This document shows positions 28,680 through 44,886 of a DNA stretch of 44,916 nt, one piece after another. Position 1 is the first letter of the stretch, and every line of letters begins with the position of its first letter. The DNA is from an uncultured Oscillospiraceae bacterium (GTDB lineage Bacteria; Bacillota; Clostridia; Oscillospirales; Oscillospiraceae). The notes under the pieces were generated by a model. It was not told the origin of the DNA, ran no database searches, and saw only the letters and a program-made list of their open reading frames with translations. The translations under genes were made by a program, and so were the position numbers. The stretch is taken from NCBI GenBank assembly GCA_950097245.1, contig CATNCS010000014.1, positions 1 through 44,916 of the forward strand, given 5' to 3'.

Positions 28680-31519
<2,840 letters not shown>

Positions 31520-31624: not shown

Positions 31625-31638
31625 GATCAGCGCTCTAC

Positions 31639-31714: not shown

Positions 31715-31849
31715 AACACGAAGCGCCGAGCCGTCGTGAGTAGCACGGATGGACCGGAGCGAGGGCGAAGAACCGAAGAACGCGGAGCGTTCTGTTCTGA
31801 GTCCGAGTCGAAGGGAAGCCGGGCGTCGCGAATAGGCAAGGCGTGACAC

Positions 31850-31924
31850 GGCCCGTTGGTCAAGCGGTTAAGACGGCGGCCTCTCACGCCGCAAACATGG
31901 GTTCGATTCCCGTACGGGTCACCA
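31850..31924 (+). tRNA. tRNA-Glu(CTC)
   Basis: 75 bases with CCA, anticodon loop CTCTCAC. The 135-base gap after tRNA-Lys holds no recognisable gene. Confidence 0.94.
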
Positions 31925-31936
31925 AAAAATTTCCCC

Positions 31937-31964
31937 TTGACATTCCGAGAAAATCGGTTATAAT
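31937..31964 (+). promoter_or_regulatory. Consensus promoter in front of 5S
   Basis: Perfect TTGACA and TATAAT with a 16-base spacer, 78 bases before the 5S. It would allow transcription of 5S independently of 16S-23S. Confidence 0.75.
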
Positions 31965-32042
31965 ACTTACTGTTGAAAAGGCGGTAAGGAGAGAAAAATG
32001 TGATGTTTTCTTTGCTTACTTTCTTTTCAAAAGGAAAGTACA

Positions 32043-32158
<116 letters not shown>

Positions 32159-32160
32159 TA

Positions 32161-32194
32161 AAGGGTCCAGCCCGCTGGGCCGGACCCTTTTCTT
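32161..32194 (+). terminator. Terminator directly after 5S
   Basis: AAGGGTCCAGCCC pairs with GGGCCGGACCCTT (one mismatch) and is followed by TTTCTT. The next tRNA begins three bases later, so the downstream tRNAs need read-through or another promoter. Confidence 0.8.
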
Positions 32195-32196
32195 AT

Positions 32197-32272
32197 GCCT
32201 CCTTAGCTCAGTCGGTAGAGCATGCGGCTGTTAACCGCAGGGTCGTTGGTTCGAGTCCAACAGGTGGCGCCA
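32197..32272 (+). tRNA. tRNA-Asn(GTT) with an acceptor-stem mismatch
   Basis: 76 bases with CCA and anticodon loop CTGTTAA. The acceptor arms GCCTCCT and AGGTGGC pair at six of seven positions; position 4-69 is T-T. Discriminator base G. Confidence 0.93.
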
Positions 32273-32310
32273 AAAGCGGCTTGCCGCCAGCTTCGACGGC
32301 AAGCCGTTCT
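32273..32310 (+). terminator. Hairpin with short T-rich tail
   Basis: GCGGCTTGCCG and CGGCAAGCCGT form a strong stem followed by TCTTT, between tRNA-Asn and tRNA-Met. Confidence 0.55.
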
Positions 32311-32332
32311 TTCCAAATAAGGCCGCGGCCAT

Positions 32333-32409
32333 GGGCCTTTAGCTCAGTTGGTTAGAGCAGCCGGCTCATAACCGGCCGGTCCACGGTTCGAGCCCGTGAA
32401 GGCCCACCA
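32333..32409 (+). tRNA. tRNA-Met(CAT), elongator type
   Basis: 77 bases with CCA, anticodon loop CTCATAA, fully paired acceptor GGGCCTT/AAGGCCC. The first pair is G-C, so it is not an initiator tRNA. Confidence 0.93.
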
Positions 32410-32416
32410 TCTATTT

Positions 32417-32492
32417 AGGGGTATAGCTCAGCAGGTAGAGCAGCGGTCTCCAAAACCGCGTGCCGAGGGTTCGATTCCTTCTGCCCCTGCCA
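32417..32492 (+). tRNA. tRNA-Trp(CCA)
   Basis: 76 bases with encoded CCA, anticodon loop CTCCAAA, acceptor AGGGGTA/TGCCCCT. Confidence 0.96.
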
Positions 32493-32526
32493 TGTGAGTT
32501 GCAGAGTGATCTGTTTTAATAAAAAT

Positions 32527-32603
<77 letters not shown>

Positions 32604-32608
32604 TTTAC

Positions 32609-32684
<76 letters not shown>

Positions 32685-32690
32685 ATGTTT

Positions 32691-32724
32691 AACCGCTCAA
32701 ATCGGAGGATTTGGGCGGTTTTGC
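32691..32724 (+). terminator. Terminator just inside the island
   Basis: AACCGCTCAAATC pairs with GATTTGGGCGGTT and is followed by TTGCTTTG. It would stop tRNA-Thr transcription before it enters the integrase antisense. Confidence 0.75.
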
Positions 32725-32748
32725 TTTGTTTATGTAACTATTCCGTGA

Positions 32749-32805
32749 AAACTGACATTTTGCCGAATGTGGCCTTTTCGGAGAAACTGACACAAAAACT
32801 GACAC
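32749..32805. promoter_or_regulatory. Putative integrase arm sites, left end
   Basis: Three direct copies of AAACTGACA(C): 32749-32757, 32784-32793 and 32796-32805. The last two start 12 bases apart. The same repeat occurs twice near the right end (42252, 42263), as expected for arm-type sites of a tyrosine integrase. Confidence 0.6.
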
Positions 32806-32834
32806 CGACAAGAAAAAACAAGCTGGACAGAGTG

Positions 32835-34031
32835 CTATCCCTGCCCAGCTTTCTTTATGGCCTCCCGCACGATCTGGGCGGCCTGACTGATACTCTCCTG
32901 GTCCGCATGGGTATACATCCGCAGGGTCACGGCCTTGTCGCTATGGCCCAGGGCCTCGCTGACTGAGGCCACGTCCGCCCCGTTGGTGATGGCGATGCTG
33001 GCGAAGGTGTGGCGGAGCTTGTGGGGGTGCAGGCCTGGGACCCCGTACCGCTCGGAGAACTTCTTCAGGTAGCGGGTGGGGCTTTGGGGGTGCATCGGCT
33101 CCGGGCTGCCCTCCTGAGTGAAGACATAGGCGCTGATGGCCCTCCCGGCCTGCTCTGTGCGGAGCTGGCGGAGAAGGGCCAGGGTGTGATCCCCGGCGTA
33201 TACAGTCCTGGTGTGGCCGTTCTTCGGGGTGTCCAGGTATACGCCCCTGCTGCTGGTGTAGCATAGATTTCTGGCGATGGTGATGGCGCCGGTGGCGAAG
33301 TTGATGTCCTGCCACCGTAGGGCACAGCACTCCCCCCGCCGGATGCCCGTGTCAATCAGGAGGTGGACAAGGGCCTGCCATTTCAGCGGCTCCCGCTCAA
33401 GGGCGGTGATGATCTTCTGGACCTCCGCCGGGGTGTAGGCCAGCGGTCCATCGTCCTGGACTTCATCCTTCCTGGGCTTTGGCCGCTCCACCTTGTCCAT
33501 CGGGTTGCGGTCTATCATGTCCCCCAGGTAGGCCATCTTAAAGAAGCTGTGCAGAATGGTGTAAACCTTGATGACAGTGGAGTGGGCCTTGCCATCGGCC
33601 TGGATGTCCAGGAGCAGGGCGCTGATCTGGGCCGGGGTGATCTCCGGGAGCTTGAAGTCGCCCAGGGCGGGGTAAATTTTCTTGTCCATGTAGCTTTGGT
33701 AGTTGGCTCGGCTGTTCTCACTCATGGTGACGGTTTTTGAGGGCATGAAGACCCGCTCGCCGTACTGCCTGAAGGTGAGTATCTTTGCAGCCTCCGCCGC
33801 CTCCTGGGCGGCCCGTTCCCTTTGCTCTGCCCTGCTGACTACCTCCCCGGCATCGCATTGGCGCTCGAACTCAGCCGCCACCGCCGCCAGCTCCCGCTCA
33901 ATGGCCTTCCTGCTCCAGCCGTCCGGGACGTACCAGCGCCGGGTGAGGCGGGACTTGTCCCGGCCACGGCTGACGTTGATTTCATAATAGACCCGCCCGT
34001 CTTTGGTGAGCATCTTCCTGGTCGATGCCAT
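32835..34031 (-). CDS. Tyrosine integrase of the tRNA-Thr island
   Basis: 398 residues. An N-terminal arm-binding (AP2-like) region with YYEINVSRGRDKSR and RRWYVPDGWS is followed by a SAM-like core-binding domain (residues about 90-190) and the catalytic domain with Arg in TGIRRGE, His-x-x-Arg in HKLRHTFAS, His in LGHSDKAV and the nucleophile Tyr in RMYTHAD. All catalytic residues are present. It lies 150 bases from the left attachment site and reads towards it. It is probably silenced by tight regulation from the adjacent CI-type repressor region. Confidence 0.94.
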   Translation of the reverse strand: MASTRKMLTKDGRVYYEINVSRGRDKSRLTRRWYVPDGWSRKAIERELAAVAAEFERQCDAGEVVSRAEQRERAAQEAAEAAKILTFRQYGERVFMPSKTVTMSENSRANYQSYMDKKIYPALGDFKLPEITPAQISALLLDIQADGKAHSTVIKVYTILHSFFKMAYLGDMIDRNPMDKVERPKPRKDEVQDDGPLAYTPAEVQKIITALEREPLKWQALVHLLIDTGIRRGECCALRWQDINFATGAITIARNLCYTSSRGVYLDTPKNGHTRTVYAGDHTLALLRQLRTEQAGRAISAYVFTQEGSPEPMHPQSPTRYLKKFSERYGVPGLHPHKLRHTFASIAITNGADVASVSEALGHSDKAVTLRMYTHADQESISQAAQIVREAIKKAGQG

Positions 34032-34066
34032 GTGGTATCATCCTCTCTGGGCCTGTGGCCCGGTTA

Positions 34067-34726
34067 TTACTCTGTTTCGTCATCCTCCTGGGCAGCCTGC
34101 CGGGGGATGGTATCTCCATAGGCCGTGAGCTTTTTCTGGGCTTGGACAGCTTTCATATCCTGGGCAAAGAGCCTGCATAATTCTTTTCGCAGACGGGAAA
34201 TCTCTGAAACTATGCCAAAATAGGCATCGGCCAGATCTGCGCTGAGCCGACTTGAAAATATCTCGTCCTTATCTGGGCTGCTGGATGTTGCGTAGTCAAC
34301 AACGGCACCACTGTAGATGGATTTGATTTTCTGGAAATCCACCATGACAGAGGACAGGCAGTTCAAAACGGCGGCATAGGATTTTGTGTCTGCCCCGTCT
34401 TCTAAGAAACCTTCAAGGACTGGAAGAAATTTTGCCCGAATATCTGGCCGGACTGCTTTTAGCAGCTCGGATATTCTGTCGGATTTTTCTGCCGCATCTG
34501 TCCAGGCGGAAGATGTACGAAAGGGAGTGATCCCGAGTAGATAATCAGCGGAAACGCTAAAATACCTGGCAAGCTGCAATACTGTGTTGGCATCTGGAGT
34601 GCGGTAACCATTTTCGTAATTATTTATGGCATTTGCTCGCATCCCGATTGCTTCAGCAAGCTCTCGCTGTGAAATGCCTTTTTCTTTCCGCAACTCCTTG
34701 ATGGTGTAGCCGAGTGCTGTATTCAT
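34067..34726 (-). CDS. CI-type XRE repressor of the island
   Basis: 219 residues. Residues 5-65 form a Cro/CI helix-turn-helix (YTIKELRKEKGISQRELAEA, then NAINNYENGYRTPDANTV). The long C-terminal part, mostly helical with no protease motif (no Ser-Lys LexA type), could dimerise or bind an inducer, as in Stl-type satellite repressors. Its base composition is more AT-rich than the host genes. It has its own promoter, divergent from the excisionase-like genes. Confidence 0.82.
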   Translation of the reverse strand: MNTALGYTIKELRKEKGISQRELAEAIGMRANAINNYENGYRTPDANTVLQLARYFSVSADYLLGITPFRTSSAWTDAAEKSDRISELLKAVRPDIRAKFLPVLEGFLEDGADTKSYAAVLNCLSSVMVDFQKIKSIYSGAVVDYATSSSPDKDEIFSSRLSADLADAYFGIVSEISRLRKELCRLFAQDMKAVQAQKKLTAYGDTIPRQAAQEDDETE

Positions 34727-34756
34727 AACACATACCTCTCAAAAAGTAGATAATTC

Positions 34757-34785
34757 ATTATAGCACAGGAAGCACCCAAATGCAA
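34757..34785 (-). promoter_or_regulatory. Repressor promoter (minus strand)
   Basis: TTGCAT (34780-34785) and TATAAT (34757-34762) on the minus strand with a 17-base spacer, 31 bases before the repressor ATG. Confidence 0.7.
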
Positions 34786-34813
34786 TAGATATGAAAACAA
34801 ATCCAAATGAGGG

Positions 34814-34842
34814 TTGACATATACCTTGATTGGATGTAATAT
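34814..34842 (+). promoter_or_regulatory. Early rightward promoter of the island with operator-like repeats
   Basis: TTGACA and TAATAT with a 17-base spacer. The repeated GATTGGA (34828, 34854) and the inverted ATCCAAAT (34801) around it are candidate repressor sites. Confidence 0.65.
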
Positions 34843-34871
34843 GAAATTAAACTCGATTGGAGGTGACATGA

Positions 34872-35105
34872 GTGGAAAGAACCAAAAGCCTGCTCGGTAG
34901 TGTTGATGATCTGCCCGCTATTGTTTCTCCCAAAGACATAGAAAAATTGGGATTTTCAAAGGCAGTAGTCTATCGGATGTTCCAGACCCCCGGTTTTCCA
35001 GGTGCTCGCATTGGCCGAAGAAGGGTAGTCCGCAAGGAGAAGCTGGTCGAGTGGCTGGACGCTGGAGCTGAACAGGGAGGAGAAACGGGAGGCGACCTGA
35101 CATGA
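34872..35105 (+). CDS. Small HTH protein, excisionase/AlpA-like
   Basis: 77 residues with a MerR-type winged-helix pattern: IVSPKDIEKLGFSKAVVYRM, then the GFPGARIGRRRVVRKEKLVEWL wing. It is typical of Xis/AlpA-like activators and recombination directionality factors. The start is GTG 34872, 6 bases after GGAGGTG. Its stop overlaps the next ATG (ATGA). As the first gene of the early rightward operon it may act in excision or activation. Confidence 0.7.
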   Translation: MERTKSLLGSVDDLPAIVSPKDIEKLGFSKAVVYRMFQTPGFPGARIGRRRVVRKEKLVEWLDAGAEQGGETGGDLT

Positions 35106-35365
35106 GTAGGGCAGAAATGAGGCCACCCCCGGAGGTGTGGCGGATCAATGGGCTGGAGATAAAGCCATTCCTCGGCGTGAAAGACGCCTGCCGGGTGTCT
35201 GGCCTGTCGCAGAAGTACATCCGCAGAGGCCTGAAGGATGGAACCATCCCCCATATTGTGTCCGGCTCCGAGGTGAGCGGAAAGGGGCATGGCACATACA
35301 TGATAAATATGCCGGCGTGGCTGAAGCAGTTGGGGGTCCCGCTCCAGGGCGGGGACCTGGGGTAA
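35102..35365 (+). CDS. Second small HTH protein, excisionase-like
   Basis: 87 residues: EIKPFLGVKDACRVSGLSQK, then YIRRGLKDGTIPHI and GTYMINMPAWLKQL. The pattern of a DNA-binding helix pair followed by a beta wing and a closing helix resembles HTH_17/excisionase domains. It is translationally coupled to the preceding gene. Which of the two acts as Xis cannot be told. Confidence 0.6.
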   Translation: MSRAEMRPPPEVWRINGLEIKPFLGVKDACRVSGLSQKYIRRGLKDGTIPHIVSGSEVSGKGHGTYMINMPAWLKQLGVPLQGGDLG

Positions 35366-35377
35366 GGTGGTGGAGAT

Positions 35378-36100
35378 ATGGCACAGGAACGCCCAGGAAT
35401 TATGGTATATTTTGATGACATCCTGCCCTCTCTGCAATGCCTGAGCCTGGAGGATGCCGGTCGGCTTTTCATTGCCATGCTACAGTACGGTCGAGATAGG
35501 ACAGAGCCTGACTTCAAAAACTCGGCTGGGCTGGCTATTGCGTGGAGCTTCATCAAAGTCAAAATAGACCGGGACAGTGACAACTATGATAGGTCCGTCC
35601 TCAAAAGCAAATATGGCGTCTACAAGAGGGAATGCGGCAGGCGGAAAGATACCCCTCTGGGCTTTGATGAGTGGTGTATGCTGATGGACCATCCTTCATC
35701 CCCCATGATGCCCCCTTCATCCCCCATGATGGAGGCTTATCCAACTGCAACAGCAACCAGCAACGGCAACCAGCAACTGGAACCGCAACCGCAACTGGAG
35801 CTGGAACTGCAACAGGAGAGGGAAGCGCCGCAGGCGCTCACCCGCTCGAAGCGTTTTGTTCCTCCCACCTTGGAGGAGGTGACCGCCTACGTCCAGGAGC
35901 GTGGCAGCATGGTGGACCCACAGGGGTTTATCGACTTCTACGCCGCCAAAGGCTGGATGGTGGGCCAGAACAAAATGAAGGACTGGAGGGCGGCCTGCCG
36001 GAACGCTGAGAAGTGGGAGCGATGGAAAAGGCCGAGTACCAGGAATGATGTCAAGACCGCCTCAGACTATGAAGGCGGGGAAGATTTTTTCGGTCGATAG
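35378..36100 (+). CDS. Replication-organiser-like protein
   Basis: 240 residues. The N-terminal 115 residues (VYFDDILPSLQCLSLEDAGR, then FKNSAGLAIAWSFIKVKIDR) match the DUF6291-type start of phage replisome organisers. A low-complexity linker rich in Gln, Leu, Glu, Thr and Pro (about 125-155) follows, then a DnaD-like C-terminal segment (FIDFYAAKGWMVGQNKMKDW). It is likely to bind the island origin and recruit the DnaC-like loader encoded next, 15 bases downstream. Confidence 0.72.
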   Translation: MAQERPGIMVYFDDILPSLQCLSLEDAGRLFIAMLQYGRDRTEPDFKNSAGLAIAWSFIKVKIDRDSDNYDRSVLKSKYGVYKRECGRRKDTPLGFDEWCMLMDHPSSPMMPPSSPMMEAYPTATATSNGNQQLEPQPQLELELQQEREAPQALTRSKRFVPPTLEEVTAYVQERGSMVDPQGFIDFYAAKGWMVGQNKMKDWRAACRNAEKWERWKRPSTRNDVKTASDYEGGEDFFGR

Positions 36101-36115
36101 GAGGATTGGAAGCGC

Positions 36116-36952
36116 ATGAACATAGACATATCCGGCCTGATGAAGGCCCATGAAGAAGACGGCGACTACACCGGCGATGATGGCCTGCTGTACTGTGGGA
36201 AATGCCATACCCGTAAGCAGATGCGTTTGCCGGTCAACCCGTTTACTGGCAGTAGCGACCCGGCTATTGTTCCTACTGCTTGCCAGTGCCAGCAGGAAGC
36301 AGATAAAGAGGCTGAGGAGCGGGAAAAACAGGAGCGGTTTAACCAGGCTATGAGGACACGATGGGAGGACGGGATTTCCCGCCCGGGTGGATTGCGCCAT
36401 ACTTTTTCCGAGGATGACCATGTGAAGCCGCAAGAGGTCGCCGCTTGTCAACGGTATGTGGATTACTGGGAAGAACTGAAAGCGGAGAATATCGGCATGC
36501 TGCTGTATGGGAGTGTTGGAACAGGAAAGACCTTCCTCGCTTCTTGCATCGGGAATGGCCTGCTGGAAAAGCGGGTGCCTGTCGTGTCCACCAACTTTCC
36601 GAGGCTACTGAACTTGCTTCAGGAAACACGAGAGAAGCAAAAACTTCTCGACCGCCTCTCAGTCTATAAGCTGCTGATCCTGGATGATCTGGGCGTGGAG
36701 CGGGATAGCGCCTATGCCGCCGAGCAGATATTCAATATCATTGATGCTCGGGGCAGTTCAGGGTTGCCGGTGATCGTGACAACTAATCTGACGCTGGAGG
36801 AGCTGGAACACCCCACGTCCATGCAGTATGCCCGGATATATGATCGGGTGCTGGAGATGTGTCCTATTCGCATTAAGCTGACCGGCGATAGCCGAAGGCG
36901 GGGAAATGCCGAGAAGCGGAAGAAGATCGCACAGCAAATTCTTCTTGGCTGA
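36116..36952 (+). CDS. DnaC/IstB-like helicase loader ATPase
   Basis: 278 residues. The N-terminus has a zinc-binding pattern (CGKCHTRKQ and later CQCQQE). The AAA+ core has Walker A GSVGTGKT, Walker B YKLLILDDLG and sensor segment VIVTTNLTLEEL. The C-terminal arginine-finger region ends RIYDRVLEMCPIRIKLTGDS. It would load the host replicative helicase at the island origin. AGGAGG lies 12 bases before the ATG. It follows the organiser gene by 15 bases. Confidence 0.88.
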   Translation: MNIDISGLMKAHEEDGDYTGDDGLLYCGKCHTRKQMRLPVNPFTGSSDPAIVPTACQCQQEADKEAEEREKQERFNQAMRTRWEDGISRPGGLRHTFSEDDHVKPQEVAACQRYVDYWEELKAENIGMLLYGSVGTGKTFLASCIGNGLLEKRVPVVSTNFPRLLNLLQETREKQKLLDRLSVYKLLILDDLGVERDSAYAAEQIFNIIDARGSSGLPVIVTTNLTLEELEHPTSMQYARIYDRVLEMCPIRIKLTGDSRRRGNAEKRKKIAQQILLG

Positions 36953-36963
36953 GGTGTGGCGTC

Positions 36964-37302
36964 ATGGGAAAAGCATCACAGCGCAAGGGCGCCGACGGCG
37001 AGCGGGAGCTGGCCGGCATCCTCCGGGGGCGTGGATATGACATCGAGCGGGGCGGGTCCCTGTCCTATGGGGAAGCGCCTGACCTGGTGGGGCTGCCTGG
37101 GGTACATATCGAGGTCAAGCGGGTGGAGCGGCTGAACGTGCCCGAGGCGATGGATCAGGCCGTCCGGGATGCTGACCGCTTCGGAGGCTTCCCTGCCTTG
37201 TTCCATCGGCGGTCCCGCTCCCCGTGGCTGGTGACCATGCGGCTGGCCGATTGGCTGGAGCTGTACCAGGCCTTCGAGGACAAAGAAAGGGCCATCCCCT
37301 GA
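36964..37302 (+). CDS. PDDEXK nuclease, Holliday-junction-resolvase-like
   Basis: 112 residues: KGADGERELAGILRGRGYDI, then APDLVGLPGVHIEVKRVERL. The E...PD...ExK catalytic pattern is complete. Proteins of this size occur in phage and satellite replication modules as putative resolvases. Immediately after the loader gene. Function is assigned by family only. Confidence 0.72.
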   Translation: MGKASQRKGADGERELAGILRGRGYDIERGGSLSYGEAPDLVGLPGVHIEVKRVERLNVPEAMDQAVRDADRFGGFPALFHRRSRSPWLVTMRLADWLELYQAFEDKERAIP

Positions 37303-37312
37303 AGGATGGCCC
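37289..37312. terminator. Hairpin at the end of the nuclease gene
   Basis: GGGCCATCC and GGATGGCCC with a 6-base loop, spanning the stop codon. There is no T-run, so it may be an RNA-stability or attenuation hairpin. Confidence 0.4.
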
Positions 37313-37380
37313 ACCGCCTCCCCCGAAGGAGAGACAGCCCCTGACAGGACTATTCTACCATAAGGGAGGCGGCCACGTCA

Positions 37381-37884
37381 ATGACGAGGGATGAACTGGA
37401 GAGAGCCATCACGATGGCGGTGGAAGCTGGAAGGATGGCAGCGACCCGGATGGCAAAGGACGCCTTCAAGGCCACCGAGCGCCGCCTGTGCGCTATCCCT
37501 GATCTGCGGGAGAAGCTGAAGGACGACGAGGAAGAACTGGAGAAGACCCGGAGGGATGGCCTGAAAGAACGGAGCCAGCGCCTTACCCGCTTCTTCAAGT
37601 CTGGGGTGAGGCTGACCCCCGAGGAGATTATGAAGGCCGTCATAATTGACCTGGAGGCCGCTGTCGCTTCAACCAGCTATGAGCTGGATGTTCTGGATAA
37701 GGCCCTGGCCTCCATACGGGACGACCCCTATTACCTGGTCGTTGACGGGAAGTATGTCCGGCGGATGACCGACGAGGAGATTGCCGAGCAAATCCATTGT
37801 GATCCGTCTACTGTCTGGAGGAACCGCAAGCGCCTTGTCCAGCGTGTGGCTGTCCGCCTGTATGGGGTGGACGCCACGAAATAG
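37381..37884 (+). CDS. Phage late-regulator-like protein (ArpU/RinA-type HTH)
   Basis: 167 residues, mostly helical. The C-terminus has a sigma-region-4-like HTH: DDPYYLVVDGKYVRRMTDEE, then IAEQIHCDPSTVWRNRKRLV. This build is shared with ArpU/RinA-like activators of phage late genes. GGGAGGCGG lies 8 bases before the ATG. In a satellite it might respond to or mimic the helper's late switch. Exact family placement is uncertain. Confidence 0.65.
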   Translation: MTRDELERAITMAVEAGRMAATRMAKDAFKATERRLCAIPDLREKLKDDEEELEKTRRDGLKERSQRLTRFFKSGVRLTPEEIMKAVIIDLEAAVASTSYELDVLDKALASIRDDPYYLVVDGKYVRRMTDEEIAEQIHCDPSTVWRNRKRLVQRVAVRLYGVDATK

Positions 37885-37891
37885 CCTGTTT

Positions 37892-37974
37892 GCCCCGTAG
37901 CGGGCCGCACAAGCAGGGGTGGCCTCCAGGGGTAGGGAATTACCCTCTGGAGGCTGTGCGAGCGTTTACGGGGC
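37892..37974. other. Nested hairpin between convergent genes
   Basis: Four nested complementary arm pairs: GCCCCGTA/TACGGGGC (37892/37967), CGCAC/GTGCG (37906/37956), GCCTCCAG/CTGGAGGC (37922/37947) and GGTA/TACC at the tip. There is no T-run. It could be a terminator-like structure, a small structured RNA or a replication-related site. Confidence 0.5.
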
Positions 37975-38517
37975 GTCCTGGACCTCAATCTTGAAGTAGA
38001 GGGTCCCGGTATATGTGCCGTCGATGGTGGTGTCATCCGCCGTGGCGCTGGCGACGATGTAGCCGAAAGACACAGGGGTGGTGTTGCCGTCCTCAAAGGC
38101 GGCGGCCAGGGTACGATCTGGGGAGCCAATCCATTCCCCCGTGACGCCGTAGGTGCTGGAGCGGTGAAGGTTGCACAGCGCCTTGTATTTGGGCTTTTCG
38201 GTGTTGGTCAGGAAGAAAAAGCCGTTTTCATCAAAGGTCTTCTCCCAATCGACAGATATGGTCAGGAGCTTTCCCGCTCCGATGTCCACCTTGCTGGCGG
38301 TGATGGCAAGGCAGGGGGTGGTGTTGGTGTCGTAGGTGGCGGGGATGTTTACGACGTATGAGGGCTGGGCTGGCGCTTGGACGATGGGAGGGGCTTCCGT
38401 CCTGATGCCTGAGAAGGTGCAGTAAATTTGGGTATTGGCTTCTGCTGCTGAGGCCGGGAGGGGAAGCGCCAGGAGAAGCGCCAGGGAAAGAAGTGCGGCG
38501 AGGGCTTTCTTTTTCAT
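37966..38517 (-). CDS. Secreted protein of unknown function
   Basis: 183 residues with a clear Sec signal (MKKKALAALLSLALLLALPL, cleaved after ASA). The mature part is beta-rich: VVNIPATYDTNTTPCLAITA, then GAGKLLTISVDWEKTF and a C-terminal DGTYTGTLYFKIEVQD, typical of small secreted Ig-like domains in gut Firmicutes. ATG 38517 follows GAGAGGTGG. It is the last of three leftward genes; the middle one is also exported. It is island cargo with no clear role in replication. Confidence 0.68.
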   Translation of the reverse strand: MKKKALAALLSLALLLALPLPASAAEANTQIYCTFSGIRTEAPPIVQAPAQPSYVVNIPATYDTNTTPCLAITASKVDIGAGKLLTISVDWEKTFDENGFFFLTNTEKPKYKALCNLHRSSTYGVTGEWIGSPDRTLAAAFEDGNTTPVSFGYIVASATADDTTIDGTYTGTLYFKIEVQDAP

Positions 38518-38531
38518 GGGTGGACCACCTC

Positions 38532-39023
38532 TCAAATTATTTCTATCGTGAGTTTGACGTCAGCCCCATTCATGGGCTGCATCCCATCCAGGGAGTAACA
38601 GCTATAGCGGAGGATCGAGCTTTCATAGGTCCCCGCCGGCGGGACTGAGGCGAGGGCCATGGTCGATAGGCTTTCCCCGGGAGAGACAAGGCCTGATCTG
38701 AAAATCTCCTCTCCGCTCGGGAGAAACAGGGAGATGACGAAGTAGCAGGCGTTTCCCGCCGGGTTGTAGAAGGGGGCCGCCTGCTGGCCGGTGCTGGCCG
38801 TGATCTGGAGCTTGTCGAAGCCGGGGATGGTGATAGACCCCTCCGGGGCCGTGGCCTGGGCCGTTGGGGTCGCTGAAGCGGCAGCTGCTGGCGGCAAGTC
38901 CACGGTTGCCACTGGCGCCGGGGTGGTGGCCCCTTCCCCCATGTGATACCCCACCATGCCGGCCAGGAGGATGAAGGCGACCGCACAGAGGATGCCCAGG
39001 GTAAGCACCAATTTGTCACGCAT
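38532..39023 (-). CDS. Membrane-anchored exported protein of unknown function
   Basis: 163 residues: an N-terminal anchor (LVLTLGILCAVAFILLAGMV), a Pro/Ala/Thr-rich linker, then a beta domain with ITIPGFDKLQI, SGLVSPGESLS, PPAGTYESSILRY and a final DVKLTIEI. The LSPGE..., PAGTYE... pattern recurs in surface proteins of Clostridia; no function is known to me. ATG 39023 is preferred over GTG 39032 because GGGGGG lies 7 bases before it. It ends 14 bases before the next gene's start. Confidence 0.65.
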   Translation of the reverse strand: MRDKLVLTLGILCAVAFILLAGMVGYHMGEGATTPAPVATVDLPPAAAASATPTAQATAPEGSITIPGFDKLQITASTGQQAAPFYNPAGNACYFVISLFLPSGEEIFRSGLVSPGESLSTMALASVPPAGTYESSILRYSCYSLDGMQPMNGADVKLTIEII

Positions 39024-39028
39024 GAAGT

Positions 39029-39427
39029 TCACCCCCCTTCTTTGTCTGCCGCCCCTATGGTATCAGCTCCCGGGCTGGATGGACAGGCAAAGTGGGTGGG
39101 TGATTTTTTCCACCTCCGCATGGTGGAGTTATCGGCGGGGCAGGAAGCTGTGGCCCCGGCCTCCACGGCCTCTATGACGGGGCGGGCGTAGTGCTTATAG
39201 GGGCGCATGAAGTCTGGAAGCTCCAGGTGGAGCCGGTGACAGACCGGGCACCGTAGGCGTCGGAGCTGGAACAGGAGGACGGCCCCTGATCCGTCCACTA
39301 CCCGGCGGGGCCTGGTGTCATAGCCTGAGAGCAGCACACCGCAGGCGGGGCAAATGGGCGGGTCCCTGGCCCGGATGCGGTAGGCCCCCGGCACCTTCTC
39401 CACCGTGTAGCGGGTCACTATCAGCAT
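39029..39427 (-). CDS. Zinc-ribbon protein of DUF6431 type
   Basis: 132 residues with two CxxC pairs (ICPACGVLL and RCPVCHRLHLELP) and a following helical HTH-like part (RPVIEAVEAG, then DNSTMRRWKK). It resembles stand-alone zinc-finger/HTH fragments annotated DUF6431 in Clostridial mobile elements. It is the first gene of the leftward trio, and its stop lies within the SD region of the next gene. No strong SD is seen for ATG 39427. Confidence 0.6.
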   Translation of the reverse strand: MLIVTRYTVEKVPGAYRIRARDPPICPACGVLLSGYDTRPRRVVDGSGAVLLFQLRRLRCPVCHRLHLELPDFMRPYKHYARPVIEAVEAGATASCPADNSTMRRWKKSPTHFACPSSPGADTIGAADKEGG

Positions 39428-39445
39428 AGGCCATGTTGACGAAGA

Positions 39446-39479
39446 AAGGGGTCCCTCTCCTGGTGGAGCGGGACCCCTT
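39446..39479 (-). terminator. Terminator, minus strand
   Basis: AAGGGGTCCC (39446-39455) pairs with GGGACCCCTT (39470-39479). On the minus strand the stem is followed by TCTTC. It separates the HTH gene at 39523 from the zinc-ribbon gene. Confidence 0.6.
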
Positions 39480-39490
39480 GACTATGCAAC

Positions 39491-39512
39491 GAACCACGAG
39501 CGAACCACGAGA
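39491..39512 (+). repeat. Isolated 11-bp repeat pair
   Basis: GAACCACGAGC directly followed by GAACCACGAGA, then AATGGGGGG. It has the same layout as the seven pairs at 41661-42012. Confidence 0.8.
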
Positions 39513-39522
39513 AATGGGGGGC

Positions 39523-39738
39523 CTACGGGTCATCAGGGACATAGGTCATAAAGTCCCCCGGCTGGCAGTTGAGCCTCTTGCACAGGGCCTCTATGGTGCG
39601 AGAATCAATCCCCCCACTGACCTGTCCGAGTAGCTTTTGCCTTGTTGCGCTTCCGATGACCTTTTCTGCATTCAGCTTATAAATGGTGGTCCCGTTGGCC
39701 TTCAAGATGTCCTGAAGGCGGCTATAATCCATCGCCAT
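39523..39738 (-). CDS. Cro/CI-type HTH protein
   Basis: 71 residues: DYSRLQDILKANGTTIYKLN, then ATRQKLLGQVSGGIDSRTIE and ALCKRLNCQPGDFMTYV, a compact XRE helix-turn-helix. The start is ATG 39738 with AGAGGAAG upstream; the longer frame to 39846 runs through the promoter. It diverges from the rightward genes at 40203 across a region with TAGGC operator-like pairs, and is likely a local repressor. Confidence 0.75.
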   Translation of the reverse strand: MAMDYSRLQDILKANGTTIYKLNAEKVIGSATRQKLLGQVSGGIDSRTIEALCKRLNCQPGDFMTYVPDDP

Positions 39739-39816
39739 GCTGTCACTTCCTCTCTGGGGGCGGCGGCTTTTTATAAAAGCCCGCTCTCCTAGTATAGCTA
39801 TATTATAGCGCAAAAG

Positions 39817-39912
39817 ATAGGCAATATCTAGGCCAAAAATAGACAAAGAAAAAGCCTAGAGTTTGGCTATAATGTCAATAGACAATAGGCAAGAATTAGG
39901 CTATACTATAAT
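39817..39912. promoter_or_regulatory. Divergent control region with paired TAGGC operators
   Basis: ATAGGCAATATCTAGGC (39817-39833) and ATAGGCAAGAATTAGGC (39885-39901) each place two TAGGC sites 11 bases apart. The inverted GCCTA (39854) and TGGCTA (39864) lie between them. A TATAAT at 39907-39912 may be the rightward -10. Confidence 0.55.
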
Positions 39913-40202
39913 CACAGCAAGGGGGAAGACCCCAAGCGGGCCTGGTCAACTGGAGAAGGCCCACGGAAGGGGGTAAAGCACCAGGGACAAGGGCGGGACG
40001 GGATTTCCGAAAGGGACGGGCCTGAATAGGACAGAAGCCCCCCGCCACCCGGTCAAGGGGACAACGGCAATCGTTTATAAGCCTAACACCGAGATTGCGT
40101 ATAAGAGCGGAACGGTATAGGGAATGGGAAGCAGATGAGGCCACAGCCCTAACGACCCCCGCCGCCGAAGTCCCCCACCAAAATCTGAAAGGAGATCACA
40201 CC
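39913..40202. other. Leader without a recognised gene
   Basis: About 290 bases between the TATAAT at 39907 and the ATG at 40203. It has several short GC-rich direct repeats but no supported reading frame. Only the SD AAAGGAG at its end is recognisable. Confidence 0.4.
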
Positions 40203-40472
40203 ATGAGCATGAACGAGATGGAGAGCAAAATCCGGGAGCTGCGCCAGCTCCAGAACCTGATCGAGGAAGCCCAGGCCGAGGCTGAGGCCATCAAGGACAG
40301 CATCAAGGCCCAGATGGGGGATGCCGAGGAGCTGAGGGCCGGGGAGTACAAGGTCACCTGGAAGGCCGTCACCGCCTCCCGCCTGGACACCGCCGCCCTG
40401 AAGAAGGCCCTGCCGGATGTGGCCGAGCGGTTTACCAAGACCACCACCTCCCGCCGCTTCTGCGTGGCATGA
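40203..40472 (+). CDS. Small coiled-coil phage-type protein
   Basis: 89 residues: MSMNEMESKIRELRQLQNLI, then EAEAIKDSIKAQMGD (coiled coil) and a C-terminal part EYKVTWKAVTASRLDTAALK ending RRFCVA. The C-terminal half resembles the tail that follows YqaJ-type recombinases in phages (VTWK...S.LDTKALK...T..R.F). Here it stands alone with no nuclease. ATG 40203 follows AAAGGAG. Function unknown. Confidence 0.6.
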   Translation: MSMNEMESKIRELRQLQNLIEEAQAEAEAIKDSIKAQMGDAEELRAGEYKVTWKAVTASRLDTAALKKALPDVAERFTKTTTSRRFCVA

Positions 40473-40603
40473 GAAAAGCCCCTTGCATCAATGCCCGTCA
40501 AAGCTGTATGCAAGAGGCCCCCACGGACCCACCGGGGCGGGTCTGCTCCCTCAGTATAGCAGGCCCGCCCGGAAATATCAAGATGGAGGAGAGAATATTA
40601 CAT

Positions 40604-40789
40604 ATGCACACCCAGGCTGAATATGCGAGAAACGAGAGAGAAATGCTTGCCCTGTATAAAAGTTTACCCTGGAAGGAGCAGGTCATATTTATTGGCCGCC
40701 TCCAGTATGCGGCGGAGCAGGTACGGGCGGAAGGGTCCGGCAAGGTCATCCAGTTTCCTGCTGCCGCCCGGGAGCTGGCGAAGCTCTGA
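40604..40789 (+). CDS. Small hypothetical protein (61 aa)
   Basis: MHTQAEYARNEREMLALYKS, then LPWKEQVIFIGRLQYAAEQV and VIQFPAAARELAKL. GGAGGAGAG lies about 10 bases upstream of ATG 40604; an in-frame ATG at 40583 overlaps that site. Predicted helical, acts with no known partner. Such proteins are common in Clostridial prophages. Confidence 0.55.
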   Translation: MHTQAEYARNEREMLALYKSLPWKEQVIFIGRLQYAAEQVRAEGSGKVIQFPAAARELAKL

Positions 40790-40867
40790 GCGCCGGAAGG
40801 CTGAAGGCCCAAGAAATGCCCGTTTTGAGAGCTGGCAGGATAGGCCTCACGTCGAGGGCAAAAGGTG

Positions 40868-40896
40868 TTGACATTATGTGATATATGACATATAAT
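40868..40896 (+). promoter_or_regulatory. Perfect promoter of the toxin-antitoxin pair with internal palindrome
   Basis: TTGACA and TATAAT with a 17-base spacer, both perfect. TATGTGATATATGACATA overlaps the spacer and -10 and is a near-perfect palindrome, a likely autorepression site. Confidence 0.85.
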
Positions 40897-40922
40897 AATG
40901 GTAGCAGAAGGCGGGTGAATGT

Positions 40923-41282
40923 ATGGGCTACGCGGTGGAATACTACGAACTGGGGGACGGGAGTAGACCAGCGGAGCAGTTCATATTATCACAGGATGAC
41001 AAAATGAAGGCCAAAATATTCTCTGTCCTGACGTATCTGGAGGCCAAGGGGCCTGAGCTTCGAGAGCCGTATTCCAAATCATTGGGGGATGGAATCTTTG
41101 AGGTCAGGGCAAAACAAGGGTCGGATATTACCCGTGTTCTGTATTTCTTCGTAGTCGGGCAGAAGATCATCCTGACGAACGGCTTCGTGAAGAAGACGCA
41201 GAAGACGCCCCGGGGAGAGATTGACCGGGCAAAGCATTATCGTGCTGATTACCATAGCAAGGTGGCGGCGAAGGAGGGGTAA
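40923..41282 (+). CDS. RelE/HigB-type toxin
   Basis: 119 residues of the phage-derived Gp49/HigB-like RelE superfamily: VEYYELGDGSRPAEQFILSQ, then LREPYSKSLGDGIFEVRAKQ, DITRVLYFFVVGQKIILTNG and FVKKTQKTPRGEIDRAKHY. These contain the Arg/Lys and Tyr-Phe residues typical of this ribosome-dependent mRNA interferase group. It precedes its antitoxin by 3 bases, the HigBA order. Predicted to cleave mRNA when the antitoxin is degraded. Probably stabilises the island. Confidence 0.88.
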   Translation: MGYAVEYYELGDGSRPAEQFILSQDDKMKAKIFSVLTYLEAKGPELREPYSKSLGDGIFEVRAKQGSDITRVLYFFVVGQKIILTNGFVKKTQKTPRGEIDRAKHYRADYHSKVAAKEG

Positions 41283-41285
41283 GCT

Positions 41286-41582
41286 ATGGGGAAGAATTTC
41301 CGTGATACACTCAATGAGCAGTTAAAGGACCCTGCGTTCCGGGCTGAGTGGGAGGCCCTGGAGCCGGAGCGCCAGATAACCATGGCGATTATCGAGGGAA
41401 GGACGTCTAATCACCTGACCCAGGAGCAGCTTGCGGCGGCCACGGGGATCACACAGGCCGACATCAGCAGGCTGGAGAATGGGACCGGGAACCCTTCGCT
41501 CCGTACCTTGAAGCGGCTGGCAGCCGGGATGGGGATGACGCTGAAGCTGGAGTTTGTCCCCTCCGCCCCTGCCGGCCAGTAG
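41286..41582 (+). CDS. HigA-type XRE antitoxin
   Basis: 98 residues. The N-terminal arm KNFRDTLNEQLKDPAFRAEW is typical of HigA antitoxins; a helix-turn-helix follows (LTQEQLAAATGITQADISRL, then ENGTGNPSLRTLKRLAAGMG). It binds the toxin through the N-terminal arm and the operator through the HTH. The palindrome in the promoter at 40868 is the expected target. Confidence 0.88.
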   Translation: MGKNFRDTLNEQLKDPAFRAEWEALEPERQITMAIIEGRTSNHLTQEQLAAATGITQADISRLENGTGNPSLRTLKRLAAGMGMTLKLEFVPSAPAGQ

Positions 41583-41592
41583 AGACTACCAG

Positions 41593-41620
41593 GACCGCTT
41601 CCAATGGGGGGCGGTCTTTT
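41593..41620 (+). terminator. Terminator after the toxin-antitoxin pair
   Basis: GACCGC (41593-41598) pairs with GCGGTC (41611-41616), followed by TTTT. Confidence 0.65.
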
Positions 41621-41660
41621 GTGATTTAATGGGATTGGAGAAGGAAGGGACTGAACCATC

Positions 41661-42012
41661 GAACAAAGGACGAACAAAAGGAAATAGGGTAAAAGGGCCG
41701 TTGCCGCTGGATCTATTGAAGCCGTGAGGAAGCCGTGAAGAATGGCAGAAAAGGCGGGCACCTCTGGAGCTATCGAAGCGGCGAGGAAGCGGCGAAAAGG
41801 GTGGTGCCTGCCCTGGAGCTGAAGCCCCAACGAAGCCCGAGAAATGGGGGGTGTTGCCCCTTCCTGGAATGATGCTCGAACTCCGAGCGAACGCCGAGAA
41901 ATGTGAAGGCTGTCATGCCTATCGAAGCGAGAACGAAGCGTGAAAAAGTGGGGGCTGTTCCCCTGAAAAGAAGCCCTGCAAAACCTCAACGAACAGAGAA
42001 CGAACAGAGAGA
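41661..42012 (+). repeat. Array of seven 11-bp direct-repeat pairs
   Basis: Pairs start at 41661, 41718, 41775, 41821, 41878, 41924 and 41991. In each, two adjacent 11-mers begin with GAA, and the second starts exactly 11 bases after the first (for example GAAGCGGCGAG then GAAGCGGCGAA at 41775). Inner sequences usually match within a pair more than between pairs. Each pair is followed by (G)AAATGG-like bases and often a short GC hairpin. Distances between pairs are 57, 57, 46, 57, 46 and 67 bases. No protein-coding gene is convincing here (41621-42414). Confidence 0.85.
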
Positions 42013-42251
42013 AATGCGCTTATCACCCCTTGCGATGTTGCCGCTGGGGGAAGGGATGAAAGCCCCCTTTCTGAGGCCATCCAGGCGGCCCGTATGGAGC
42101 GGGAGGGGCTGGACCCTTCCCAAGATGCTGATGGCGGCCATACGGAGGCGGAGGGGGTCTGACGTGGCTTTGTGTAGGTCGCCAGTCTGCCCGCATCCCT
42201 GCTGGAATGGTGATCTGTAGGGATGAGGTCAGGCGGTACTTTCCCCTGGAG

Positions 42252-42272
42252 AAACTGACACAAAACTGACAC
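42252..42272. promoter_or_regulatory. Putative integrase arm sites, right end
   Basis: AAACTGACAC at 42252-42261 and 42263-42272, 11 bases apart, the same repeat as at 32749-32805. The 142 bases from here to the attachment repeat hold no gene. Confidence 0.6.
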
Positions 42273-42414
42273 GGGCATGGGTTGGAAAGTATGGCTAACT
42301 GCTGACAAGGTATGGCAAGCAGGGGCAAGAAAATGGCGGGATGCCTTGGCCGACAAGGGCTAAAGGAGGATAAGGCAGGATAAACAATGGCAAGGAAAAT
42401 CAAGCGGTTATGAG

Positions 42415-42459
42415 TTGGTAAGGATGAGGTCCCCAGTTCAAATCTGGGTAGCAGCTCCA
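42415..42459 (+). repeat. Right attachment repeat
   Basis: 45 bases identical to 32640-32684. It is a tRNA-Thr 3' fragment with no 5' half, so it is not a functional tRNA. Confidence 0.93.
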
Positions 42460-42625: not shown

Positions 42626-44047
42626 TCACCCTACTTTCAGACGTTTTCTTTCGGCGGCAATTTCCGTTTTCATTTCTACTATCATCTCTGCCAGCAGTTT
42701 TTCACACTCTTCCTTGTTGTGGGCATAGATATTTCTGGGGTGTTTTTTGCCATCCGGCCAGATTGGGGAATAGCGGCCTTCCCAGAGTTTTTCGTTGATC
42801 TGGGTGACGCACCCGGTCCCCGCTTTACGCCGCTGTCCTTTGTGGGCCTGGAATGTACTGGGAACAGGCTTTCGAGGTGCTAACTGAGTCTCTGCTTGTA
42901 GCTCAGTTTTTCCGATGCCCTGGTCGATCTTCACTGCCGCTGTACGACGCATTTCATCGGTAACGTGAGCGTAGATGTTCAGCGTGGTGCTGCTGGAGAC
43001 GTGGCCGATGATGGTGGACAGGGTCTTGATATCCATCCCATGTTCCAAGGCAGTGGTAGAAAATGTGTGTCTGAGGTCATGAAATCTGATTTTCTTACAT
43101 TCTGCCCGTTCCAGAACGGTCTGTAATCTTTTGCGAACTGCGGCTGGGTCTCTGGGCGAGTCCTCGCTGACCGGGGAAGGGAACATCCACCGGGAGTTCA
43201 TGGTTTCTTTGTAGGCCCCGAGGACATCCAGAACAGGCACAGGGAGGATCACGCTGCGGTTACCTGCCTTGGTCTTGGGTGGGGAGGTTACCAGTTTGCC
43301 TTTGACCCGGTGAACCTGCCGTTCTACCCGGAGTTCCCCAGTGCGGAGGTTGAGGTCATCCCATTGGAGGGCGCATATCTCGCCCCGCCGCAGTCCAGTG
43401 GAGAGCTCCAACAGGAGAAGCTCGAAGCAACTGTCCTCTTTGGCTTGGATCAGCAGACGTTGGATTTCCTCCGGAGAAAGCACCTGCATTTCTCTGGCTT
43501 TGGCGGAGGGGAGACGGCAGCCATCGGCGGGATTGCGGAAGAGGAGCTTTTCCGCAACGGCCTTGTCCAGTGCGGCATGGAGGGTGGTGTGGATGCCCCG
43601 AACAGTCTGGTCGGACAGTCCTTCACCATATAATTCAGACCGGAGCAGTCTGCCGCCCTGCTTGAGTTTAGCGTAGAACTGCTGGATGTCGTTGGTGGTC
43701 AGTTTGTCCATCTGGATATTGCCCAAGGCTGGGGTGATGTGCTGGTAGATGCGCCGCTCGTAGGACATCTGAGTATTGGGGCGGAGATTGGATTTCTTAT
43801 AGGTCTGATACCAGATATCCAGCCAGTCCCCCAATAGGATTCCAGGTTTAGGCTGTTCAGGAGCAGGAGCCTGGATGCTGTCCCTCAGTGCCTTGAGTTT
43901 TGCGATACAGTCCGACTTGGTCTTTGCCAGAAGATTTTTGGTGACGGGGAGGCCTTTATCGTCGTAGCCGACGACTACCCTCCCCTCCCAGCGGCCGTCT
44001 TTTCTCAGGCTGACGCCGCCGTCCCCGCGCTTTCTGCGTTTTGCCAC
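42626..44047 (-). CDS. Tyrosine recombinase with N- and C-terminal arm-like domains
   Basis: 473 residues. The N-terminal AP2-like arm-binding domain (GDGGVSLRKDGRWEGRVVVG) is followed by a core-binding domain (residues about 70-190) and a catalytic domain with Arg in TGLRRGE, HDLRHTFS, GHVSSST and the Tyr of NIYAHV. After the catalytic domain a C-terminal extension of about 90 residues contains a second arm-like module, GTGCVTQINEKLWEGRYSPI. It reads towards the right attachment repeat, as the island integrase does towards the left one. It overlaps the end of the preceding recombinase gene by 43 bases. Confidence 0.9.
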   Translation of the reverse strand: MAKRRKRGDGGVSLRKDGRWEGRVVVGYDDKGLPVTKNLLAKTKSDCIAKLKALRDSIQAPAPEQPKPGILLGDWLDIWYQTYKKSNLRPNTQMSYERRIYQHITPALGNIQMDKLTTNDIQQFYAKLKQGGRLLRSELYGEGLSDQTVRGIHTTLHAALDKAVAEKLLFRNPADGCRLPSAKAREMQVLSPEEIQRLLIQAKEDSCFELLLLELSTGLRRGEICALQWDDLNLRTGELRVERQVHRVKGKLVTSPPKTKAGNRSVILPVPVLDVLGAYKETMNSRWMFPSPVSEDSPRDPAAVRKRLQTVLERAECKKIRFHDLRHTFSTTALEHGMDIKTLSTIIGHVSSSTTLNIYAHVTDEMRRTAAVKIDQGIGKTELQAETQLAPRKPVPSTFQAHKGQRRKAGTGCVTQINEKLWEGRYSPIWPDGKKHPRNIYAHNKEECEKLLAEMIVEMKTEIAAERKRLKVG

Positions 44048-44886
44048 GGTTTCATCTCCTCTCCAAGGTAATCAGTCAGAAAGCCGCCGACAATGTCAGC
44101 GGCACGCTTCTGCATATCGCCGGTGGTGTGGGTATAGGTATCCAGAGTGAAGGACGCTTTGGTGTGGCCAAGGATTCCAGCCAGGGTTTTGGCATCCACA
44201 CCGCTGGACAGCGCATGAGTTGAGAATGTGTGTCTGAGGTCGTGGAAGCGGATATTTGGCAGTCCAGCCTCCGCCAGAAATTTCTTCAGCTGTCGGTAGG
44301 CACTGTCGGGATTCATAGGGGCCTCAGGCCGAAGTGGATCGTGAAAGATCCAGGGAGAGAAAGATTTCCGCTTTCGATCTTTCAACAGCTCCGCTGTGCT
44401 GGGCGGCAGGACGATCTTCCGGGTGCCAGCGTAGGTTTTGGTATCTCCCGCCACCAGCCTGCCGCCCTTTTCCCGATGGAGGGTGCGGCAGACTTTCAGT
44501 GTGCCGCCACGCTCATCAAAGTCGGTCCACATGAGTCCGCAGATCTCACCTCTGCGAAGACCGGTGGTCAACTCAGTGTAGAAGAAGTCATGCCAGATTT
44601 CATCGGCTTTGATCGCTGTCAGGAAAATATCCAGTTGCTCCTCGGTTAGAATCTTCATAGGCTGGTGAATTACCTTGGGCGGCTCCACCTCATCAGCGGG
44701 ATTGACAGGAATGAGTCCCTGATCTTTTGCTGCTTTGAGTGCGTGGTGGAGCGTAGTGTGGATGCTGTGGACGGTAGTGCTGGACAGCCCGGCCTTCCGT
44801 AAAATCTTGTGTAAGCGATATTCGACAAAGTCAAGTATAGAGCTGTGAAAACAGAATAGAATGATGGCTGAAGCCCTTCCTAACAC
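44005..44886 (-). pseudogene. Tyrosine recombinase truncated at its 5' end
   Basis: The frame gives 293 residues, but similarity to integrases begins only near residue 25 (LHKILRKAGLSSTTVHSIHT). The first 24 residues are encoded by unrelated sequence beyond about 44814, and the arm and first core-binding helices are missing. The catalytic residues are intact: TGLRRGE, HDLRHTFS, LGHTKAS, DTYTHTT. It lies just upstream of the second recombinase and probably formed a tandem pair with it. It was likely interrupted by a mobile element at 44815-44820. Confidence 0.7.

What the first reader, a model, noticed from the sequence alone, without database searches (positions are those of the whole stretch)
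41661..42012. Phased array of paired 11-bp repeats with pair-specific sequence
Seen: seven pairs, each with exactly 11 bases between copies, and pair-to-pair distances of 57, 57, 46, 57, 46 and 67 bases, which lie close to one another modulo one helical turn. Sequences are mostly similar within a pair but variable between pairs, with a shared GAA start and a following (G)AAATGG. An eighth pair is at 39491. Inference: iterons or a protein-filament site on one face of DNA (origin, excision or packaging), or the remains of a tandemly duplicating unit. Translation of some units gives IEA.RK.R-like words, so a decayed repeat protein is an alternative.
Basis: partly seen in the sequence, partly recalled or inferred. 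Interest (0 to 1): 0.75.

Follow-up and report, generated by a model that had tools for sequence, protein, structure and literature searches.

The report
Satellite array of phage packaging-type sites
A small mobile element that seems to travel inside the shells of other viruses of bacteria carries, in a row, seven different copies of a paired 11-letter DNA mark that such viruses normally carry once, inside a packaging gene, which suggests that it can ask to be packed by several different viruses.

Summary
The array is real: seven tandem 11-bp pairs at the stated places, plus one at 39491. The same kind of pair lies inside intact phage genes directly upstream of the terminase large subunit (KGG-type small terminase, terS, named by position). 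There it is kept at the DNA level: in 41 diverse terS genes the two copies match 9.0/11, against 7.63 +- 0.13 when synonymous codons are shuffled (0 of 5000). In 8 phage records the exact half-sites occur only there. The window element (32640-42459, tRNA-Thr target, ~9.8 kb, no terS found) looks like a phage satellite. Its sister L417 has an intact terS where the window has the array; a terS 3' remnant survives at 42065-42157. The units are nearest to sites of different phage or element groups (two are 25/25 identical). In another element family, non-coding pairs differ in both copies in concert between identical flanks. Best reading: a packaging-recognition (pac-like, TerS-read) site, collected in several specificities so that several helpers can pack the satellite. 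TerS binding and packaging are inferred, not shown; cos versus pac is undecided; two other sister elements lack such sites; some replication-gene iterons look alike.

The parts
41661..41682 (+). U1, tandem 11-bp pair (reads R T K D E Q K E in the terS frame)
   Evidence: its upstream flank also resembles a terS start region
41718..41739 (+). U2, pair; 25/25 with non-coding sites of the tape-measure element family
41775..41796 (+). U3, pair; 24/25 with KGG-gene sites of L393 and L402 and a non-coding site of L417
41821..41842 (+). U4, pair (8/11 within)
41878..41899 (+). U5, pair; 25/25 with the terS site of EJ-1-type Streptococcus phages
41924..41945 (+). U6, pair
41991..42012 (+). U7, pair; 24/25 with terS sites of L101, L119
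39491..39512 (+). U8, isolated pair; a 28-bp block with 27 identical bases is kept in L417 between indel-rich flanks
42065..42157 (+). remnant of a terS 3' end (no terS match in this genome)
   Evidence: 71% identity to the end of L417 terS, alignment; phrog_2412 search: no match in G000
32640..32684 (+). attL: 3' end of tRNA-Thr(ggt)
   Evidence: 45-bp exact repeat
42415..42459 (+). attR: same 45 bp
32835..34031 (-). tyrosine integrase of the element
   Evidence: Pfam PF00589 3.7e-30
34067..34726 (-). HTH repressor-like gene
35378..36100 (+). DUF6291 gene, replication-type by position, with its own internal repeats 35742-35828
36116..36952 (+). DnaC-like helicase loader
   Evidence: phrog_50 6.9e-52
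36964..37302 (+). RusA-like / PDDEXK resolvase
37381..37884 (+). phage-type transcriptional regulator
   Evidence: phrog_36 7.9e-16
40923..41582 (+). HigBA-type toxin-antitoxin pair (40923-41282, 41286-41582)
   Evidence: Gp49/DUF891 and HTH_3; the name HigBA is recalled

Best explanation
The paired 11-bp sequence is the recognition site for starting DNA packaging, read by the KGG-type small terminase (TerS) of a large group of Firmicute phages; in the phages it lies once per genome, inside the 5' part of terS itself. Two abutted, near-identical half-sites one helical turn apart would be contacted by neighbouring subunits of a TerS oligomer; the variable core (GAA[C/G]nnn) would set specificity, which would be why both copies change together. 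The window element is a phage satellite that lost its terS and carries eight such sites of different specificity, all on one strand, so that terminases of several different helper phages can start packaging it. Shown: the sites, their DNA-level constraint in terS, their singleness in 8 phage records, non-coding copies in satellites, concerted change, and an intact terS at the same place in a sister element.
For: (1) terS by position: in 7 of 7 annotated Streptococcus phages examined (of 10 phage records listed, the other three having the length and coordinates of one of these) the KGG gene is directly upstream of the annotated terminase large subunit. (2) DNA-level site: 41 protein-retrieved terS genes (no pair over 75% identical; from 79 of 111 loci, 32 dropped by the motif filter) have 9.0/11 identity between copies, against 7.63 +- 0.13 after shuffling synonymous codons (0 of 5000) and 4.78 (max 5.56 of 2000) under the codon usage of the codons that follow; Arg0 is CGA in 33 of 39, the later Arg20 and Arg21 in 2 of 41 each. 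(3) 8 of 8 phage records have 8-11/11 in terS; the exact half-site occurs nowhere else in any of the 8. (4) Three Streptococcus satellites whose own terS lacks the repeat (6, 3, 5 of 11) each have one separate pair (9, 10, 9 of 11) between genes or at a gene edge; the same stretch is in 5 of 5 satellites listed; their terS are close relatives, so this is one independent case. (5) Sister L417: intact terS with a site where the window has the array, plus two non-coding sites of other types. (6) U8 and its L417 counterpart keep 27 of 28 bases between indel-rich flanks. (7) Another element family: at one non-coding place L257 and L260 differ from L409 at the same three positions in each copy, with 100/100 identical flanks. 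(8) Window units match sites of different groups: 25/25 for U2 and U5, 24 for U3 and U7, 23 for U8, 21 for U1, U4, U6; random 25-mers of the element reach mean 11.2, max 17. (9) All eight window sites share the strand of the terS remnant.
Against: No binding or packaging data. No convincing terminase match by fold: no PDB match at E<=0.001; in BFVD one hit labelled terminase large subunit (rank 3, E 3e-4) and a small-subunit label only at rank 12, E 0.19. PHROG calls the family unknown function. Two other sisters with the same integrase type, L366 and L367, have no such site, and none of the 22 other loci of that scan has an array. Published work on SF6 TerS finds little sequence specificity for pac repeats (PMC4737164, passages). 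TerS genes share ancestry, so the shuffle test overstates independence. Some replication-gene iterons of other phages have a similar 11-bp form. The yardstick in (8) is easy, because the library was itself chosen for GAA pairs. In two of the five GAACAGGC-type rows at the place named in (7) the second copy differs by one base.
Confidence: 0.62

Rival explanations
1. The pairs are iteron-like binding sites of a phage replication initiator (helper or satellite), so that the array is an origin or a decoy.
For: 11-bp tandem iterons of closely similar form lie inside DnaD-like (by eye) replication genes of other phages (L430 GAACAACGAGY repeated about eight times; L426, L427, L439). Arrays of repeats are typical of origins (general knowledge).
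Against: In 8 of 8 phage records the exact terS half-site occurs nowhere else; EJ-1's annotated putative origin repeats at 6884-6966 are unrelated. The sites are pairs with different cores, not many equal copies. The window's own replication-type gene has other repeats. The iteron hits were chosen by a pattern of that form.
Confidence: 0.13
2. Only a decayed terS/KGG-repeat gene: a 19-codon unit duplicated in tandem and then degenerated, without function.
For: 57 bp = 19 codons; unit tails read as damaged KGG motifs; a terS 3' remnant follows.
Against: Pairs stay 8-10/11 matched in a region whose frame is broken; unit cores are nearest to different groups; the U8 block is conserved in L417; concerted change occurs in non-coding DNA elsewhere.
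Confidence: 0.12
3. Operator of a late-gene activator (RinA/Ltr type), copied by satellites to respond to the helper.
For: [quoted passage not shown] L417 has a pair directly before a promoter-like stretch upstream of its toxin-antitoxin genes.
Against: In terS the site lies roughly 10-14 codons after the likely start, not upstream of a promoter; the Ltr sites described are four repeats. No recognised gene follows the window array up to attR other than the terS remnant.
Confidence: 0.1
4. Recombination sites (integrase arm-type or other) or short homology for mosaic exchange with phages.
For: The array lies near attR; an arm-like 11-bp repeat sits at 42252; cores are exchangeable.
Against: The arm-like repeat is a separate motif kept next to att in L002, L367 and L417, while the paired sites are absent from L366 and L367, whose integrases are 83-85% identical. 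In phages the site is in terS, far from att.
Confidence: 0.03

Closest known systems
pac sites inside or next to terS (P22 gene 3 pac; SPP1/SF6 pac with boxA/B/C direct repeats)
   Same: Location in or at the start of terS; direct repeats in SPP1/SF6 (passages of PMC4737164 and PMC9611059).
   Different: Here a fixed 2 x 11-bp abutted pair with a gene-specific core, visible as codon covariation across many phages; the terS family is KGG/phrog_2412; binding not shown.
Phage-inducible chromosomal islands (SaPI, PICI) with own terS or helper cos/pac mimic
   Same: Integrase and repressor at one end, helicase loader, terS-like remnant near the other end, tRNA target, ~10 kb (class features recalled and from passages of PMC13376191).
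   Different: No terS found in the window element, and several recognition sites of different type; induction and capsid size control not examined.
StCI-301 of Streptococcus thermophilus
   Same: A satellite with two near-copies of a phage packaging (cos) sequence (PMC13376191, passage).
   Different: There one specificity, cos type; here eight sites with different cores.
PF10685 KGG repeat motif
   Same: Pfam KGG hits the N-terminus of one terS tested (2.2e-4) and weakly the other (0.11); 19-codon unit.
   Different: The window array is not an open reading frame; the pair is conserved as DNA.

Membership tests
pac (packaging initiation) site | lies in or beside terS of the phage | tested here: met
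   8 of 8 phage records; 7 of 7 annotated ones directly upstream of terL; terS itself named by position
pac (packaging initiation) site | one per phage genome | tested here: met
   exact half-sites outside terS: 0 in 8 of 8 records, one of them 50,000 of 59,501 bases; with one mismatch 3, 2 and 6 scattered hits in three of them
pac (packaging initiation) site | bound by TerS | not testable with these tools
   needs protein
pac (packaging initiation) site | packaging series start there (headful) | not testable with these tools
   no virion reads; TerL hits Terminase_6N/Terminase_3 do not settle cos versus pac
Phage satellite (PICI-like) | site-specific integration with own integrase | tested here: met
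   45-bp att repeats, integrase 32835-34031
Phage satellite (PICI-like) | replication genes but no capsid, tail or large terminase genes | tested here: inconclusive
   none recognised in the ORFs submitted from 32.8-41.6 kb, but several small ORFs were not searched (one search failed)
Phage satellite (PICI-like) | mobilised by a helper phage | not testable with these tools
   -
Phage satellite (PICI-like) | own terS (common, not universal) | tested here: not met
   only a remnant in the window; sister L417 has one
Replication iterons | several near-identical copies in the origin or initiator gene | tested here: not met
   pairs with different cores, outside the replication-type gene; binding untested
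KGG repeat protein gene | open reading frame through the repeats | tested here: not met
   stops and frame changes between units

The most novel reading that the evidence does not exclude
The array is a multi-helper packaging address: a satellite stores recognition sites of several unrelated terminases side by side, and the two half-sites of each are rewritten together, so that mobile elements track helper specificity by swapping 22-bp cassettes without touching the flanks. This would be a written record of past helpers and a portable specificity code for small terminases.
Probability: 0.42. Interest if true: 0.9.

Novelty: new variant of a known kind. Interest (0 to 1): 0.8.

Why it matters
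How small terminases bind DNA is described as unclear and controversial (PMC9611059, passages). If this is right, a compact, sequence-readable packaging site can be found by computation in many phages of gut bacteria and streptococci, helper-satellite pairs can be predicted from DNA, and TerS specificity becomes testable with natural variants. Satellites with several sites would explain how an element that needs a helper copes with changing phage communities.

Tried and rejected
Rfam over the whole window: only rRNA and tRNA. First pattern in the wrong register: no clear excess. BLAST of the array region against phages hit only the tRNA end (2 records), and against plasmids nothing. HigA-based genome loci (80 of 207 relatives kept): only the unrelated 42252-type or chance pairs. 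Loci by helicase loader: 20 fetched regions plus L097 and L098, no array; single hits in L097, L369 and L384, the last in a KGG frame. Two scans for multi-site arrays (16 and 17 stretches): mostly simple repeats and replication-gene iterons; L238 and L438 hold two-site mini-arrays of different cores 42-43 bp apart, L261 a weaker one 55 bp apart (the output of 117 was cut). ToxI-like RNA antitoxin was considered and set aside: no such toxin gene was noticed next to the array, though I ran no search for one. Protein-only coincidence is rejected by the synonymous shuffle. PDB sequence and fold searches of the terS were uninformative. Literature: the listings of searches showed no description of this site or of multi-specific site arrays; they cover only the open library, and I read passages of six papers.

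Full report
OBSERVATION. The match between copies is specific to period 11: 13 positions at 10 of 11 or better, against 0 for all other periods 5-39. The pairs are abutted. Consecutive units advance by ~0.4 helical turn, so they are not on one face.

WHERE ELSE IT OCCURS. One of 63 other same-genus genomes has the pair inside an intact gene, in front of a terminase-large-like frame (by eye), encoding RTTSEQREIAQKGGQASGAARRRKK. The family is phrog_2412, unknown function, with a weak Pfam KGG motif. In 7 of 7 annotated Streptococcus phages examined (10 phage records were listed; the other three have the length and coordinates of one of these) the homologous gene is directly upstream of the annotated terminase large subunit, so I call it terS by position. 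A predicted model of the L417/L219 protein (pLDDT 86.1, pTM 0.48) matches no solved structure at E<=0.001; among viral predicted structures the third hit is labelled terminase large subunit (E 3e-4) and the twelfth terminase small subunit (E 0.19).

DNA-LEVEL CONSTRAINT. R-T-x-S-E-Q-R-E is read from CGA ACx xxG AGC GAA Cxx xGA GAA, so the second 11-mer is read in another frame than the first, and protein conservation alone does not predict their likeness. For terS genes retrieved by protein (111 loci L100-L210; 79 passed the motif filter, one row each; 41 after removing those over 75% identical) the copies match 9.0/11; shuffling codons among sequences with the same residue at the same position gives 7.63 +- 0.13, 0 of 5000 as high; the codon usage of codons 9-40 gives 4.78. 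Arg at position 0 is CGA in 33 of 39, later Arg positions 20 and 21 in 2 of 41 each. An earlier test on 43 rows that included some DNA-retrieved loci agreed (8.70 against 7.49 +- 0.126). Relatedness of the genes is not removed by these shuffles.

ONE PER PHAGE. Direct reading of the terS codons gives 8-11 of 11 in 8 of 8 phage records; an automatic GAA-based scan flagged six of these eight, the other two having GAG in the second copy. That scan also found other pairs of 8-9 of 11 in EJ-1, MismyG and MT835491 (two each; background about 0.4 per 42 kb), not of the consensus form. The exact half-sites were found nowhere else in any of the 8; with one mismatch there were 3, 2 and 6 scattered hits in three of them.

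SATELLITES. Streptococcus satellites Javan342, 248 and 103 (three of five listed) have a terS without the repeat (6, 3, 5 of 11) and one separate pair GAACCAAGGAT GAACCAAGGRA each, between genes (Javan342) or at the edge of an annotated gene; the stretch is in all five. The window element has a similar layout: integrase, repressor, DUF6291, helicase loader, resolvase, regulator, HigBA-like pair, array, attR. L417, a 14,193-base IMG/VR contig, contains its sister: five aligned blocks of 76-87% nucleotide identity (one, over the integrase, 82%), att copies 9 kb apart. After higA it has an intact terS with a site (9/11), and the window has the array followed by a terS 3' remnant. L417 has two further non-coding pairs: one orthologous to U8, where 27 of 28 bases are kept between indel-rich flanks, and one of U3 type before its toxin-antitoxin genes, missing in the window. 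G294 (L087/L404) has a U2-type pair in a stretch without a recognised gene near a contig end.

CONCERTED CHANGE. A family of contigs (most 13-20 kb, one 8.8 kb, one 60 kb) that share a tape-measure gene (start or end motif in 13 of 13 loci looked at) carries pairs at corresponding non-coding places. I call them elements, not proven satellites; the KGG terS profile matches none of the 11 records searched, which may be fragments. At one place (site B, 8 rows) three have GAAGCGGTGAG twice and five are of GAACAGGC type (two of these with one base different in the second copy); L257 and L260 have flanks identical to L409 over 100/100 bases yet differ at the same three positions in each copy. L438 and L238 have two-site mini-arrays of different cores 42-43 bp apart, L261 a weaker one at 55 bp. 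In the class II scan 22 stretches matched: 11 in this family, 5 in KGG frames followed by large-terminase-like frames (by eye), 1 the L417 contig, and 5 in other frames or simple repeats.

THE WINDOW UNITS. Against 182 collected sites the units' best matches are 25/25 (U2, U5), 24 (U3, U7), 23 (U8) and 21 (U1, U4, U6); random 25-mers of the element average 11.2, max 17. The library holds only GAA pairs, so this null is easy to beat; the informative part is that different units are nearest to different terS or element groups.

AGAINST. L366 and L367, two other sisters with integrases 83-85% identical in protein, lack any such site; if the site is needed for packaging they must use another. Class II pairs were found in 1 of 299 other family genomes. 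Some DnaD-like replication genes carry 11-bp iterons of closely similar form (L430, L426, L427, L439), found by a pattern that selects that form. Published SF6 data found little specificity of TerS for pac repeats (PMC4737164, passages).

JUDGEMENT. A terminase-read packaging site, multiplied and diversified in a satellite, explains the location in terS, singleness in phages, non-coding copies in satellites, the common strand and concerted change. Binding, packaging and helper matching are inferred. The host group (Oscillospiraceae-like) is inferred from record titles of relatives. Papers were seen as search listings and passages only.

Noticed in passing
42252-42273: Another 11-bp tandem (AAACTGACACAAAACTGACAC) lies ~150 bp before attR; the same motif stands near att in L002, L367 and L417. 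It looks like integrase arm-type sites and is not part of the array.
   Followed up: partly
42626-44886: Two more tyrosine recombinase genes directly right of attR: probably further elements stacked on the same tRNA target.
   Followed up: no
L409-L416, L257, L260, L388, L238, L438: A family of elements with a tape-measure gene and tail-type small genes, in which no KGG terS was found by profile. Possibly satellites that bring their own tail ruler; one contig is 60 kb, so this is open.
   Followed up: partly
L430 ~9060-9140, L426 ~1338, L427 ~925, L439 ~3700: 11-bp repeats inside DnaD-like replication genes encode RTTSEQR- or RTEKEQR-like peptides, close to the terS site peptide: a curious convergence or a shared motif.
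   Followed up: partly
39805-39900: Repeated ATAGGC-type words upstream of the minus-strand ORF 39523-39846 (not searched); may be operators.
   Followed up: no
35742-35828: Short CAACAG/CAACCG repeats inside the DUF6291 gene; a candidate origin of the element.
   Followed up: no
26610-32684: Complete rRNA operon with nine tRNA genes directly left of the element.
   Followed up: no
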